This document shows positions 2,409 to 8,589 of a stretch of DNA of 9,266 bases, piece after piece. Location of the stretch: the NCBI GenBank assembly GCA_031262285.1, contig JAISHZ010000077.1:1-9266 (forward strand), given 5' to 3'. The position numbers were made by a program, and so were the translations under genes. Source of the DNA: Lachnospiraceae bacterium (GTDB lineage: Bacteria > Bacillota_A > Clostridia > Lachnospirales > Lachnospiraceae). How positions within the stretch are numbered: position 1 is the stretch's first letter; each line of letters opens with the position of its first letter. Below the pieces are notes generated by a model. That model saw only the letters and a program-made list of their open reading frames with translations. It searched no databases and had not been told where the DNA came from.

Positions 2409-2552
2409 TTACAGTTCACGTGTTCGCCGATCTACGTGAAACATCTTGGCAATGGCAAACCCTTTGACACACGCCCGGCATATCAGAAGGAATGTGTTGG
2501 CAAACACTTCAATCAAGCTGATTATGAGAAAAACTCTCATTGTGATTTTCAT
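2409..2552 (-). CDS. Possible 47-residue small membrane peptide
   Basis: An ATG at 2552 opens a 47-codon frame, MKITMRVFLIISLIEVFANT and so on, with a hydrophobic helix at about residues 6-24 and a basic C-terminus (VDRRTREL). A GGGAGAG lies upstream, but 11 nt away, which is longer than ideal. The last residues are encoded by the lone terminal-repeat half at 2415-2440, so the frame either uses the repeat as its end or is fortuitous. The opposite strand also encodes a hydrophobic run here, which lowers confidence. No family recognised. Confidence 0.25.
   Translation of the reverse strand: MKITMRVFLIISLIEVFANTFLLICRACVKGFAIAKMFHVDRRTREL
2415..2440 (+). repeat. Lone terminal-repeat half of the palindromic repeat family
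   Basis: GTTCGCCGATCTACGT (2422-2437) is identical to the conserved part of the terminal inverted repeats at 7424-7440 and 7528-7544. The preceding TTCACG is also shared with the 7424 copy. Here the motif sits in its own small palindrome (TTCACGT at 2415-2421 against ACGTGAA at 2434-2440). No hairpin core follows it directly. It lies between the permease promoter and the M23/Fic block. Confidence 0.7.
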
Positions 2553-4513: not shown

Positions 4514-4805
4514 CACCACTTTTGAAGTCCACCTCGGTCGGCGACTTGCCGTGCCGGATTGCTTCTTCAAACTCGTACAGTTTTTGCACCGTTTTTGTAC
4601 AGAAACGACCCTCGCCGTTCACAGGCTCAGTGCAACCGTACTGGCAAGTGTAGGTATCGCCGATTTCATGTCCGTTGCGGCAACCGATTCTAACGTGGGT
4701 ATCATAGGGATCCCATATCGAAGTACAGAACCGCAAAGAGAGTCTAACACCCACCCCCCAACTCTTTGCGGTTCGTCCGGTATACAATTCCAAAACCCAT
4801 GGCAA
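4509..4805 (-). CDS. Hypothetical Cys-rich protein, probably 5'-truncated by a repeat
   Basis: An open frame of 98 codons, from TTG 4805 to TAA 4509. The first roughly 33 residues are encoded by the hairpin repeat at 4718-4790 and look unlike protein of the same quality. The remainder (about 33-98) is coherent: RIGCRNGHEIGDTYTCQYGC with C42, H46, C54, C58 and later C69 could bind zinc, followed by a helical, charged C-terminus (KLYEFEEAIRHGKSP) ending VDFKSGG. I do not recognise the family. No start codon or RBS is visible between the repeat and the Cys cluster, so the original start was likely lost when the repeat arrived. It lies about 60 bp upstream of fic, same strand. Confidence 0.45.
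   Translation of the reverse strand: MPWVLELYTGRTAKSWGVGVRLSLRFCTSIWDPYDTHVRIGCRNGHEIGDTYTCQYGCTEPVNGEGRFCTKTVQKLYEFEEAIRHGKSPTEVDFKSGG
4718..4790 (+). repeat. Palindromic repeat copy A (hairpin core only)
   Basis: A perfect 13 bp stem, GAACCGCAAAGAG (4728-4740) against CTCTTTGCGGTTC (4762-4774), encloses a loop starting AGTCTAACACC. CAGAACCGCA, AGTCTAACACC and GGTTCGTCCGG are shared with copies B and C. Relative to those copies the stem carries A-T instead of C-G at the eighth pair, a compensatory change. No intact 17 bp terminal repeats flank it. To the right, sequence resembling a decayed arm (TATACAATTCCAAAACCC, then ACGAAC) is suggestive only. It sits 36 bp beyond the lipoprotein gene's stop codon. 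Confidence 0.8.
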
Positions 4806-4825
4806 ACGAACATATAACGCAGCAG

Positions 4826-7207
4826 TTACTGTTTTTCATCCATATAAACTTGCGCACGGCTCTGAATGATTTTGGCAACCTCTTCCGCTGATTTTTGCCC
4901 TGCAAAATAAGGTGCTGTTTCTTCCGCGATAATGGTAAAAAGATCTTGATTCGTCATCAAACCTCCTGACAAAGAACCCGCTGAATCAATCAATTTACGA
5001 ATATTTTCAATATCTTCTTCTTTTGCTGCATAAATCTCATACCGCTCTCCATTCCCATACCCAATACTGGAAATAGGCATTTCGACTTGTTCTCCATTCT
5101 CATCCGTCATATATTGAGGAACCATCGCTTCTTCAAACATTTTTTCCAAAGCGGATTTGAAACTGGGGAATCCCCACGAATACCGATTGTTATTATTGCT
5201 ATTTGAGTAAAGGTATTCCATAAACTCCCATGCAGCCTCTTTATGTTTCGATTTTGACAAAATTCCATACAACCCACCACCGGAACTAGTTAAAAACACG
5301 CCAGACGATTCATCCGATGTGGGATATCCAATAAAAGATACCGGTTCTCCTCCGAATTGTGCCAAAATCGCCAGATAAGAATCCACATCCCCGAAACCGC
5401 CGCTCATCAGCAGAAGGGAATCATCCGCGATACGCTGCGCTTCCGAAGGCATCTCTTGATCATAGTCATACTCCGCCGGAAATCGATTGGCAATTTCCAG
5501 ATACTTCACAAATTCGTCTGTATCAAAGCTACATTTACCGGTTTTCCAATCGATAAAGGAATCTGCATTGGTCATTAAGAAGACTTGCAAGATGACATCC
5601 TTGCTGGCATAGGAGAGCAAATCTGCATCGGGGTATTCATCCATGATAGCCAAGATATCATCTACGGTCCAGCTTTTCCGCTCTTGTAGGATAGATTTCT
5701 TTCCGGCAAAAGCTTCAATATAAAAAGTTTGCGGTATCGTAATTAAGACATCATCGAATGTATAAGCATCCAAGACAGATTCCACAAAATCTTCTTTACT
5801 CAATACAGTACTCGCATCCAAATAAGGCGTTAAATCTTCAAAAGCACCTTTGGCGGCATATTCAGCAACGTCTAACGAATCCAATGAAAAGAGATCCATA
5901 TTTTTACCGGATGCAATATCATCGTTCATAGCAGCCATCGCATTGGTATAGTCCTCTTCCGAATAATTACCGGATGGCTGATAATAGACCTTACAAGCGA
6001 TTCGATACTTATCACTTCTTTTGTTAAATGCCACGATAGCTTCTGATAAGGTTTGATCAGACATAAACGCACCAAAATTGATCATCTCTTTCTCGGGAAT
6101 ATCAGCCACAGCGGTCTTTTTCAACCACGCCAGTTCTGACCAACTACTATTTTCATCCCAATAATTCATGACTACGACCACTCTTCCATCGGATAAAACT
6201 GCGAAATATGAAATCGACGATGCGCTGATATCACTGTCTATCCAATTGAGAATCGGAGTTGAAGTCTGTGTGGTCAGATCATAATCGCATAGCGAAGACC
6301 CATCATTCATCAAAAAATCGGCGTTAACCCCTTCGTTCAGTAGTCCAATACCATTAAAACTGTAGTTTTCATAAGTGGCACCGAGTTTTTTGGCAGCAAA
6401 ATCCACCTCCATTAATCCGGGACCGTTATTCGTATAACTATACAGATAAACTTTTCCATCTTTGGCTCTACCTAAGGTAGATACATAATCTGTCGTTTCG
6501 ATCTTCCCATGGAAAGATCCATCTGCCGCGAACAAATAGATACTGGTATCTCCCGGAATATAGATCCGATCTTGCTCGTCCACATAGATATCTTGGAGGT
6601 AAACTCCCTCATCGATGATCTCATTTAATGGTTGCTCAAATAAGAAATTCCCGCTTTCGTCTATCTCGTACATCGTAAAACTCGAAACGCCATCCATGGA
6701 AAAAACACTGGAAAGTGCCAATATGTTCCCATTACTTTTCACAGTAAAAGAGGAAAAACTTTCGTTTTCTAACGATCCCAAAGAAATGGTTTTGGTCTCT
6801 CCTACTTCTAATAACGAGAAAAAGTTTATGGTGGTTGTAGGTGATAAAAAATAATCTACATTATCCGAATTATCCGGATTATCCGTTTTTATGTAGCTTG
6901 GATATTCCGTTGTCATATAGTAAAAATAGTCATTCCAAATCTCATGATTCGACATATTCGAATTCGCACCGATATCCAATTCTTGATAGGTAGCCTGATA
7001 AACATAACCATCAATGCCAAAATTGGATACATCCGACGCTTCTTCTTTTCCGCAACCACCAAGTCCTACACACCACAAAACAAACAGAAGAACTCCAAAC
7101 AACTTACTCGAGCAAAAACTCCTTTTGTGAATACGTTCTCCCCTTCGCTCCCTTTTTCCCTTGTAATCGCTACAAGATCCTTTCGGTACAACAGCTTTTT
7201 GATTCAT
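4826..7207 (-). CDS. Solute-binding lipoprotein with large N-terminal extension
   Basis: A 793-residue lipoprotein that probably captures a carbohydrate for the MalF/MalG-type permeases on the same strand. A long basic N-terminus leads to a hydrophobic segment and the lipobox LGGC (Cys about 52). Residues about 65-370 are rich in beta-strand patterns with 'SNGNILALSS', 'DEQDRIYI', 'AKDGKVYLYS' and 'LSDGRVVVVM' spaced like blades of a beta-propeller (inference). From about 376 the protein follows the SBP_bac_1 plan: FGAFMSDQTLSEAIVAFNK, DLFSLDSLDVAEYAAKGAFEDLTPYL, and near the end LYGILSKSKHKEAAWEFMEYL. Ordinary solute-binding proteins have about 400-450 residues, so the extension doubles the size. 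ATG 7207 is chosen over 7276 because GGGAGAA precedes it at proper spacing. An Asp-Asn run (DNPDNSDN) comes from a 9 bp tandem triplication. Confidence 0.88.
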   Translation of the reverse strand: MNQKAVVPKGSCSDYKGKRERRGERIHKRSFCSSKLFGVLLFVLWCVGLGGCGKEEASDVSNFGIDGYVYQATYQELDIGANSNMSNHEIWNDYFYYMTTEYPSYIKTDNPDNSDNVDYFLSPTTTINFFSLLEVGETKTISLGSLENESFSSFTVKSNGNILALSSVFSMDGVSSFTMYEIDESGNFLFEQPLNEIIDEGVYLQDIYVDEQDRIYIPGDTSIYLFAADGSFHGKIETTDYVSTLGRAKDGKVYLYSYTNNGPGLMEVDFAAKKLGATYENYSFNGIGLLNEGVNADFLMNDGSSLCDYDLTTQTSTPILNWIDSDISASSISYFAVLSDGRVVVVMNYWDENSSWSELAWLKKTAVADIPEKEMINFGAFMSDQTLSEAIVAFNKRSDKYRIACKVYYQPSGNYSEEDYTNAMAAMNDDIASGKNMDLFSLDSLDVAEYAAKGAFEDLTPYLDASTVLSKEDFVESVLDAYTFDDVLITIPQTFYIEAFAGKKSILQERKSWTVDDILAIMDEYPDADLLSYASKDVILQVFLMTNADSFIDWKTGKCSFDTDEFVKYLEIANRFPAEYDYDQEMPSEAQRIADDSLLLMSGGFGDVDSYLAILAQFGGEPVSFIGYPTSDESSGVFLTSSGGGLYGILSKSKHKEAAWEFMEYLYSNSNNNNRYSWGFPSFKSALEKMFEEAMVPQYMTDENGEQVEMPISSIGYGNGERYEIYAAKEEDIENIRKLIDSAGSLSGGLMTNQDLFTIIAEETAPYFAGQKSAEEVAKIIQSRAQVYMDEKQ

Positions 7208-7341
7208 ACTTTCTCCCATCTGCGCAACAACTGCGCGTGTACCAATCAAGCAGTTTGAAAACTTCCATAGTTTCAAACGTCACTTTCTTGTCTTTTTCTT
7301 ACAAAATAAGTCTTTATTTCTAAAAGCCGACTTTAAACAGG

Positions 7342-7350
7342 ATTATAACA
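7342..7350 (-). promoter_or_regulatory. Extended -10 promoter for the lipoprotein gene
   Basis: On the minus strand TGTTATAAT is an extended -10 element (TGnTATAAT). No good -35 box lies 16-18 bp upstream, as is usual for extended -10 promoters. It gives a leader of roughly 130 nt before ATG 7207. A perfect palindrome, TTAAGA-ttc-TCTTAA (7382-7396), lies upstream and could be an operator or an edge of the adjacent repeat. Confidence 0.6.
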
Positions 7351-7423
7351 TCAATTTTCCGGAAGATCACTTTAATATTTATTAAGATTCTCTTAAGAAG
7401 AGTCAATCATTACGATTCACGCA

Positions 7424-7544
7424 TTCGCCGATCTACGTTTAACGCTTACCAATACACAGAACCGCACAGAGAGTCTAACACCTACCACCCCGGCTTTGTG
7501 CGGTTCGTCCGGGATACACAGCCTTTGAAACGTAGATCGGCGAA
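7424..7544 (+). repeat. Palindromic repeat copy B with perfect 17 bp terminal inverted repeats
   Basis: TTCGCCGATCTACGTTT (7424-7440) faces its exact reverse complement at 7528-7544. Inside, a hairpin pairs GAACCGCACAGAG (7459-7471) with CTTTGTGCGGTTC (7494-7506), with one pair (G7469-T7496) that would be G-U in plus-strand RNA. Between the outer and inner stems the unpaired sequences CAATACACA and GTCCGGGATACA are identical or nearly so in copy C. At 121 bp with no coding frame it has the form of a miniature inverted-repeat element or a structured RNA element. Confidence 0.85.
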
Positions 7545-7691
7545 CCCGTAAATCAATGTCACTTACTTAAGAGTTTTTGAGCATTGACAAACCGAAAAAA
7601 GAGCTGATTTTATGCCGATTCCTCTAGTCGACATTTGTATCAGAAGTCTTAAGTAACTGACATTGCTTCATAGATTCTCCGATCTACGTTT
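7528..7691. repeat. 45 bp inverted repeat joining copies B and C
   Basis: The right arm of B and the left arm of C extend away from their hairpins as a 45 bp inverted repeat (7528-7572 against 7647-7691), 38 of 45 positions matching, ending in CTTAAGA/TCTTAAG. The spacer between (7573-7646) has no gene. A related but less regular TCTTAAG arm also precedes copy B at 7391. The full repeat unit is therefore longer than the 17 bp ends. Confidence 0.75.
7584..7613 (+). promoter_or_regulatory. Possible plus-strand promoter facing repeat copy C
   Basis: A perfect TTGACA -35 box (7584-7589) is followed after 18 bp by TTTTAT (7608-7613), a 4-of-6 match to the -10 consensus. Initiation near 7620 would transcribe copy C in the strand that tolerates its G-U pair. 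The -10 is weak, so confidence is low. Confidence 0.3.
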
Positions 7692-7909
7692 AGCGCTTAT
7701 CAATACACAGAACCGCACAGAGCCGAGGGGAGTTTTGGGTGTTATACGTTCTGTGGAGATGAGACCAAGTGAAAATGAGCGCTTGCTTGTGCGCACATTT
7801 TCACTGTTCTGGGCTCATCGGAACGCCCAGAGAGTCTAACACCCAAAACTCCCCTCGGCTCTGTGTGGTTCGTCCGGGATACATTGCTTTTGAAACGTAG
7901 ATCAGCGAA
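7675..7909 (+). repeat. Palindromic repeat copy C with expanded 162-nt hairpin
   Basis: Terminal repeats TTCTCCGATCTACGTTT (7675-7691) and the complement of TTCGCTGATCTACGTTT (7893-7909) differ at 2 of 17 positions. The core is a 35 bp stem (7710-7744 against 7837-7871), perfect except for G7715-T7866, which is a G-U pair in plus-strand RNA. Inside it, further nested pairings continue: CGTTC/GAACG, GATGAG/CTCATC (7758-7763/7814-7819), GTGAAAATG/CATTTTCAC (7769-7777/7796-7804) and GCGC/GCGC, closed by an 8-nt loop. Compared with B it has about 110 bp inserted after GAACCGCACAGAG. The insert begins with the reverse complement of the old loop, so the palindrome was extended rather than broken. 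Confidence 0.85.
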
Positions 7910-7950
7910 CGCCTAAATTGTAACAACCAAAAAACTTTCCGGTTTTACTG

Positions 7951-7979
7951 TTGCATATTTGCTATCTTTGAGGTAAAAT
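7951..7979 (+). promoter_or_regulatory. Sigma-A promoter of mraZ
   Basis: TTGCAT (7951-7956), a 17 bp spacer and TAAAAT (7974-7979) form a good vegetative promoter. It lies 42 bp beyond repeat copy C and immediately upstream of the MraZ-box array. The predicted start is near 7986, leaving a leader of about 170 nt before the mraZ ATG. Confidence 0.75.
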
Positions 7980-7986
7980 CAAATGC

Positions 7987-8022
7987 AAGTGGGGGGAAGT
8001 GGTACGAAGTGGGGCATAGTGG
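7987..8022 (+). promoter_or_regulatory. MraZ operator: four AGTGG boxes at exact 10 bp period
   Basis: AAGTGG at 7987, 7997 and 8007 and TAGTGG at 8017 are in perfect 10 bp register, with following bases alternating GG and TA. MraZ is known to autorepress by binding tandem direct repeats of this kind near its own promoter. The boxes begin right at the predicted transcription start, a position suited to blocking RNA polymerase. Confidence 0.8.
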
Positions 8023-8079
8023 TACAAAAGATTGAAAGAAAAGACAAGCTATACGCAACAACGACACAGCGCAATGTAA

Positions 8080-8147
8080 GTACGCAAGCGAACCAACGGT
8101 ACGCATAGCGAACCAACGGTACGCATGCGCACCACAGGTACGCGGAT
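8080..8147 (+). repeat. 19-20 bp tandem repeats in the mraZ leader
   Basis: GTACGC recurs at 8080, 8099, 8119 and 8138. The first two units share GTACGCA(t)AGCGAACCAACG almost completely, the third is degenerate and the fourth is partial. A decayed relative may begin at 8051. The array ends one base before the GGGAG ribosome binding site of mraZ. It lies downstream of the operator and is not part of the 10 bp MraZ boxes. Confidence 0.75.
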
Positions 8148-8157
8148 GGGAGCTAGT

Positions 8158-8589
8158 ATGTTTATGAGTCAATATAATCATACGCTTGATCCCAAAGGCA
8201 GGCTGAGCATCCCCGCCAAATTCCGAGAAAGCTTAGGAGAGGAATTTGTGGTGACCAGGGGAATGGATGCCTGTCTATATGTCTATGCCAATGAAGAATG
8301 GAGCGTGTTAGCAAAGAAACTGACATCCTTGCCGCTGACCAATAAAGAAGCGCGAAAATTTGCGCGGTTTATGCTTTCGGGCGCTGCAACGGTGGAAGTC
8401 GATAAACAAGGACGAATCCTCCTACCGGTGAATCTGCGAACCTATGCAGATTTGGAAAAGGACGTGGTACTCGTAGGAGTGGGAAGTCGAATTGAGATCT
8501 GGAGCAAAGAGAATTGGGAGACCGCAGACGCAGATAACGATATGGACAGTATCGCTTTGTCCATGGAAAATCTCGGTCTAACCATTTAA
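8158..8589 (+). CDS. mraZ: MraZ transcriptional regulator of the division/cell-wall cluster
   Basis: A 144-residue DNA-binding protein with two AbrB/SpoVT-like half-domains. The repeated signature appears as [18 protein letters not shown] near the N-terminus and [16 protein letters not shown] around residues 80-95, the DxxGRxxxP motif in both. MraZ forms ring oligomers and represses its own operon through tandem boxes such as those at 7987-8022. The start at 8158 is chosen because GGGAG lies 5 nt upstream and the family begins MFM(G/S)xYxHTLD. An in-frame ATG at 8125 would add 11 residues encoded by the tandem-repeat leader. rsmH follows 27 bp downstream, the usual gene order. Confidence 0.97.

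What the first reader, a model, noticed from the sequence alone, without database searches (positions are those of the whole stretch)
7424..7909. Unrecognised family of palindromic repeats with compensatory changes
Seen directly: copies A (4718-4790), B (7424-7544) and C (7675-7909) share a GAACCGCA.AGAG stem, a loop beginning AGTCTAACACC and flanking GGTTCGTCCGG.ATAC. The eighth stem pair is A-T in A but C-G in B and C, and the remaining deviations (B 7469/7496, C 7715/7866) are G-T pairs that pair only in plus-strand RNA. B and C have 17 bp terminal inverted repeats, and the unpaired CAATACACA and GTCCGGGATACA are conserved too. Conserved internal-loop sequence plus stem covariation suggests selection on an RNA or single-stranded DNA fold, not merely a decaying transposon end. 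Three copies are few, so the covariation is only indicative.
Basis: partly seen in the sequence, partly recalled or inferred. Interest (0 to 1): 0.78.

Follow-up and report, generated by a model that had tools for sequence, protein, structure and literature searches.

The report
Nested palindromic MITE-like repeat family
A small family of hairpin-shaped repeats, most likely the remains of non-autonomous mobile DNA, sits in this bacterial contig; its kind is well known, and the case that it is a functional RNA is weak.

Summary
The repeats are real. A (4725-4786), B (TIRs 7424-7544) and C (TIRs 7675-7909) are copies of one element, and a fifth TIR-like end (D, 2409-2439) was missed. B and C fold far better than shuffles on both strands. 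Corrections: B's TIR is 17/17, C's 15/17; the compensatory pair is the ninth; CAATACACA is 5/9 in A; in C most of the AGTCTAACACC 'loop' is paired in a 44-nt arm. Wobble bias disappears over all stems (three G.T inside, three A.C in the extended TIRs). One double change remains as covariation, which template switching in palindromes could also make. Copy A stands six bases from where a TIGR04076-like gene relic breaks off. C looks like a partial inverted dimer of the unit. B and C lie between divergent genes, with no promoter excess and no terminator. Best reading: a MITE-like, non-autonomous palindromic element with long and short forms and unknown parent. No relative was found, but the searches were poor: the host genome is not held, and the one genome scan used one strict pattern. 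RNA or ssDNA function is not excluded.

The parts
7391..7572 (+). Copy B, outermost extent of end similarity (TCTTAAG ... CTTAAGA); TIR-to-TIR core 7424-7544
7424..7440 (+). B left TIR (17/17 paired with 7528-7544)
7528..7544 (-). B right TIR
7459..7471 (+). B inner stem, left arm GAACCGCACAGAG (pairs with 7494-7506; one G.T at 7469/7496)
7472..7493 (+). B loop, beginning AGTCTAACACC
7507..7518 (+). B right linker GTCCGGGATACA, shared by A (11/12) and C (12/12)
   Evidence: A count by eye
7651..7925 (+). Copy C (long form), range used as query; TIR-to-TIR core 7675-7909 (TIR 15/17)
7710..7755 (-). C, inverted partial unit (left arm of the 44-nt inverted repeat)
7817..7883 (+). C, direct unit with its own diverged left arm GGAACGCCCAGAG, then AGTCTAACACC, right stem and GTCCGGGATACA
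4725..4786 (+). Copy A: inner unit only, no TIR; stem 13/13
2409..2439 (+). End D: lone TIR-like end (17-mer with 2 mismatches at 2423-2439)
4521..4718 (-). TIGR04076-like gene relic (below the family's curated cut-off); clear homology to the longer relative P0052 stops at codon 4718-4716, six bases short of copy A
   Evidence: coordinates by hand

Best explanation
A, B, C and D are decayed copies of one MITE-like, non-autonomous palindromic mobile element. A typical copy has terminal inverted repeats (core TTCGCCGATCTACGTTT), a short asymmetric linker on each side, and an inner 13-bp hairpin. It comes in a short form (B, 121 bp TIR to TIR) and a long form (C, 235 bp), the latter holding a partial inverted dimer of the inner unit. 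A transposase from an autonomous element elsewhere in the genome would have recognised the TIRs and moved copies (inferred; no transposase seen). Insertion or later rearrangement broke a TIGR04076-like gene at copy A (junction shown, mechanism inferred). Stem complementarity follows from the inverted-repeat build. The few compensated positions are plausibly kept by template-switch repair in palindromes or by transposase-site symmetry rather than by an RNA function (inferred).
For: Three copies plus a lone end in 9.3 kb, beyond shuffles. TIRs 17/17 and 15/17, sizes within the 50-500 bp that a MITE review states (PMC10969869, passages). Short and long forms differing by an internal segment, as in Correia/NEMIS 107/155 bp (PMC2229807, section 5 part 1). 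Copy A stands at the break of a gene whose N-terminus is present in both relatives found, 2 of 2. No transposase in the ORFs scanned (15 of the 35 listed ORFs plus one stop-to-stop frame through B). B and C lie in the gap between divergent genes. Both strands fold well.
Against: No clear target-site duplication around B or C by eye. No copy elsewhere was found, so dispersal and mobility are not shown. A lacks TIRs, so what all three share is the interior, unlike a plain transposon end. No parent element is known.
Confidence: 0.78

Rival explanations
1. A structured RNA (or single-stranded DNA recognised by a protein): the nested hairpin with asymmetric linker GTCCGG.ATACA and loop AGTCTAACACC is the selected product, and mobility is secondary.
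For: One compensatory pair and two G.T pairs, no broken pair, in the 13-pair stem over three copies; a random-substitution null gives this in 0.4-0.9% of cases. GTCCGG.ATACA and AGTCTAACACC are kept in all three copies. The linkers are not inverted repeats of each other, so the element is directional. Both promoter-like matches in the gap lie at C's ends and point outward.
Against: One double change only. Outer stems show A.C rather than G.U on the plus strand. In C most of the 'loop' is paired. Promoter-like matches 2 against 1.6 expected, terminators 0. No Rfam match at gathering; with lax settings three matches far below gathering score (mir-3047 on both strands, 33 of 53 bits, E 8e-5; MIR1888, 26 of 72 bits), microRNA precursor models that fit long hairpins. 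Minus strands also fold far better than shuffles.
Confidence: 0.12
2. Palindromes grown and kept perfect by DNA template switching at a hairpin-prone site, with no mobile element.
For: C looks like a partial inverted dimer: its arms match over 29 consecutive pairs. Template switching can make and repair such stems (PMC8794818, abstract and start of the introduction).
Against: It does not explain the same unit at A, 2.6 kb away beside another gene, nor the separate end D.
Confidence: 0.07
3. REP-type palindromes moved by a RAYT (Y1) transposase.
For: Palindromic, clustered, an inverted dimer; CGTC occurs at the 3' stem edge and a 13-bp stem is within the GTAG range of 5-13 bp (sequence).
Against: The C of CGTC is paired and no GTAG stands beside the stem. 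Loop 21-22 nt against 4-5 (CGTC) or 2-20 (GTAG), stem 13 against 8-9 bp for CGTC (PMC3733652, Table 1 passage). TIR-bounded. No Y1 transposase among the ORFs scanned.
Confidence: 0.03

Closest known systems
Correia / NEMIS elements of Neisseria (PMC2229807, section 5 part 1 read)
   Same: Small mobile repeats with short and long forms differing by an internal segment; transcripts form stem-loops
   Different: The extra segment here is largely complementary to the loop; no direct sequence comparison was run; different phylum
ERIC/IRU (127 bp) and RUP (107 bp) MITEs (same source)
   Same: Small repeats of similar size, moved in trans if at all
   Different: Inner hairpin flanked by asymmetric linkers; core-only copy A; no parent IS identified
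GTAG/CGTC REPs (PMC3733652, passages)
   Same: Hairpin unit, inverted dimers
   Different: Longer loop, no unpaired tag, has TIRs
bcr repeats of the Bacillus cereus group (recalled; search listing only)
   Same: Mobile repeats of about 150 bp with reported conserved secondary structure (recalled)
   Different: Not compared by sequence here

Membership tests
MITE | Terminal inverted repeats | tested here: met
   B 17/17 (24/27 extended), C 15/17; not met for A, which has no TIR
MITE | Size 50-500 bp without transposase gene | tested here: met
   121-182 bp (B) and 235-275 bp (C); no Pfam match in the one frame through B that was scanned
MITE | Several dispersed copies | tested here: inconclusive
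   A, B, C and D in one 9.3-kb contig; host genome not held
MITE | Target-site duplication | tested here: inconclusive
   None clear beside B or C by eye and; the flanks themselves are similar, so element limits are uncertain
MITE | Parent insertion sequence with the same TIRs | not testable with these tools
   No host genome; the TIR pattern found only 2 chance matches in IMG/VR
REP (RAYT-type) | Unpaired GTAG or CGTC tag at one end of a short stem-loop | tested here: not met
   By eye: CGTC overlaps the stem, no GTAG beside it; loop 21-22 nt (criteria from passages)
Structured RNA family (Rfam) | Match at gathering score | tested here: not met
   0 matches in the window
Structured RNA family (novel) | Several independent compensatory pairs | tested here: not met
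   One pair of 13 over three copies; three copies are too few for a strong test
Intrinsic terminator | GC-rich hairpin followed by a U run | tested here: not met
   0 found in 7277-8180 (that scan allows loops of 3-8 nt only)

The most novel reading that the evidence does not exclude
A mobile hairpin element whose interior (13-bp stem, AGTCTAACACC, GTCCGG.ATACA) is itself the conserved, selected part, read as RNA or as folded single-stranded DNA by an unknown nuclease or recombinase. The TIRs would be secondary; copy A (interior only, at a gene break) and C (interior duplicated in inversion) would show the interior acting as the recombination unit.
Probability: 0.1. Interest if true: 0.6.

Novelty: new member of a known kind. 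Interest (0 to 1): 0.27.

Why it matters
If only a MITE family, it adds one more unnamed palindromic repeat in a probably Bacillota contig and shows such a repeat at a gene break. It is also a caution: compensatory changes and G.T pairs in mobile palindromes are weak evidence for a functional RNA, because inverted-repeat build, master copies and template switching can all keep arms complementary. If the interior proved to be the moving or recognised unit, it would point to an undescribed hairpin-recognising enzyme.

Tried and rejected
Copies elsewhere. IMG/VR pattern GGTTCGTCCGGNATACA gave 3, all three judged chance from 201-base stretches. Genome contigs TGNGGTTCGTCCGGNATACA gave 1, in Phaeocystidibacter luteus, without the hairpin, judged chance. 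The TIR 17-mer gave 2, both judged chance. The core 24-mer gave 0. The inner palindrome gave 8: none of 8 has the ATACA linker, though L010 and L015 carry a real palindrome. TIR-TIR gave 0. Two shorter patterns gave 7 and 24, looked at only by blastn. That blastn, of the copies against all 48 loci held then (431,422 bases, E up to 0.5), gave no alignment longer than 32 bases; the best, 21 exact bases of A in L004 (E 4.6e-5), is the stretch the pattern selected for. Distant blastn of 7400-7930 (not A or D) to plasmids and phages gave none at E 1. One of the three protein searches used a frame through B and found no candidate.

tRNA-like reading: no tRNA found. Terminator: none. Integron attC: considered because GTCTAAC fits RYYYAAC (recalled consensus); no matching GTTRRRY partner by eye, so dropped. 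In one search the coordinates for A's stem were off by one and were corrected; the trial pairing of C's units with their own left arms used misplaced ends and is not used. The MAFFT alignment places C's gap so that its right-hand unit is compared; I did not use its column counts.

The 0.4-0.9% simulation was designed after seeing the data and takes 4 substitutions as given; it is not a proper test.

Full report
What is there. The window is a whole 9,266-bp contig (one search lists its own protein on a contig of that length). No genome is held for it. Its genes are an ABC transporter (solute-binding protein 4826-7276 minus, permeases 1282-2208 and 338-1309 minus), an M23 peptidase, a Fic protein, and mraZ and rsmH on the plus strand. 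The best-scoring other homologue of the binding protein is 36% identical over 95% (only the 8000 candidates sharing most words scored), so no close relative of that protein is held. The mraZ-rsmH pair and rsmH similarity to Listeria (57%) and Acetoanaerobium (54%) on records of the plasmid collection suggest Bacillota, not proven.

The repeats. B and C lie in the 0.85-kb gap between the divergent binding-protein gene and mraZ. Each has TIRs, a left linker, an inner stem and a right linker. B-C differences by region: TIR left 1/17, left linker 2/18, left stem 0/13, AGTCTAACACC 0/11 (against C's right-hand unit), right stem 2/13, GTCCGGGATACA 0/12, rest of right linker 3/9, TIR right 1/17, outer 10 nt 3/10; in sum 12 of 120. 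The unpaired stretches are identical, but at this divergence 0 of 12 or 0 of 9 is not remarkable. A shares only the interior: 87% over 63 nt with B. D (2409-2439) is a lone end.

Structure. Minimum free energies against 200 shuffles: B plus -57.0 (z -7.6), B minus -68.4 (z -6.6), C plus -135.3 (z -12.8), C minus -134.2 (z -14.2), A plus -23.5 (z -5.5); no shuffle folded as well in any of the five. Strong folding on both strands is what an inverted repeat gives. Non-Watson-Crick positions (A): inner stems G.T at 7469/7496, 7715/7866 and 7749/7832, plus two mismatches in C's 44-nt arm; TIR stems A.C at 7418/7550 and 7423/7545 (both in B's 27-nt extension) and at 7680/7904, plus C.C 7422/7546 and T.C 7678/7906. 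Pairings between copies (B left with C right, B right with C left) each have 1 G.T and 3 A.C. So the plus-strand wobble argument holds for the inner stem and fails for the outer.

Covariation. Over three copies the 13-pair stem has one pair changed on both sides (A-T in A, C-G in B and C), two pairs changed to G.T in one copy each, ten unchanged, none broken. Four random substitutions on such stems give a double change with all other changes wobble-compatible on one strand in 0.4% (transition share 0.5) to 0.9% (share 0.67) of 200,000 runs each. But the stem was chosen because it looked intact, copies may descend from different master elements, and template switching can produce compensatory changes (PMC8794818, abstract and start of introduction seen).

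Anatomy of C. Its 44-nt arms (7710-7753 and 7828-7871; 40 WC, 29 of them consecutive) include the loop sequence of A and B on the right and its complement on the left. The minus strand of 7710-7755 aligns to B's unit (74% over 46 nt, E 0.002 for the window), and 7755-7647 to B's 7465-7572, out to its CTTAAGA end (72% over 113 nt, E 1.4e-9). C is best read as a partial inverted dimer with about 60 nt between. A and B instead go straight from AGAG to AGTCTAACACC. Which form is ancestral cannot be told. The two linkers of B and of C show no inverted similarity to each other, so the element is not one simple decayed palindrome.

Mobility. A minus-strand relic beside A matches P0052, a 154-aa protein that its source calls TIGR04076 family: 83% over 75 aa, an alignment that includes nine nearly unmatched residues at its start. 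Against the NCBIfam model both score below the curated cut-off of 33 bits (21 and 26 bits), so I call it TIGR04076-like. Clear homology begins at IWDPYD. The start KKWINE..RFTI, present in both proteins found (2 of 2), is missing here, and copy A begins six bases away (coordinates by hand from the ORF). The relic's other end is cut too. This is a junction, as insertion or rearrangement would leave. The 9-mer ATGGCAAAC occurs on the plus strand only at 2452 and 4799, twelve bases after D and twelve after A; shuffles of the two 40-nt stretches share a 9-mer in 0.5% of trials. It might be a duplication flanking a 2.3-kb insert, but it was noticed after the fact.

Transcription. Promoter-like sites in 7277-8180: 2 found, 1.6 expected; terminators 0 found, 0.9 expected. 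The two promoter-like sites lie at the two ends of C and point outward, which would fit a mobile element affecting its neighbours, but their number is what chance gives. Nothing suggests a dedicated transcript.

The single genome scan used one pattern with 18 fixed bases and found one chance match; a different pattern or a protein query might have found kin. Failure to find relatives is therefore weak evidence. No paper in the library contains any of five 15-16-base strings from the element.

Verdict. Ordinary in kind: a MITE-like palindromic family, unnamed in what I could search.

Noticed in passing
4521-4718 (-): Relic of a TIGR04076-like gene, cut at both ends, beside copy A; a longer 154-aa relative, P0052, is held from a JGI source.
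   Followed up: partly
2452-2460 and 4799-4807: 9-bp direct repeat ATGGCAAAC flanking the block with M23 peptidase, Fic and the relic, which stands between the binding-protein and permease genes of an ABC transporter; possibly an inserted island.
   Followed up: partly
7987-8026: Four AAGTGG/TAGTGG units at 10-nt spacing before mraZ, like MraZ boxes (recalled).
   Followed up: no
8087-8126: Exact 20-bp tandem duplication AGCGAACCAACGGTACGCAT just before mraZ.
   Followed up: no
7528-7575 and 7644-7691: B's right end and C's left end form a 48-nt, 83% inverted repeat around a 68-nt spacer, so the outer flanks of the two copies are also related.
   Followed up: partly
7674-7703 (-) and 7890-7919 (+): The two promoter-like matches of the gap lie at C's two ends and point outward; number as by chance.
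   Followed up: no
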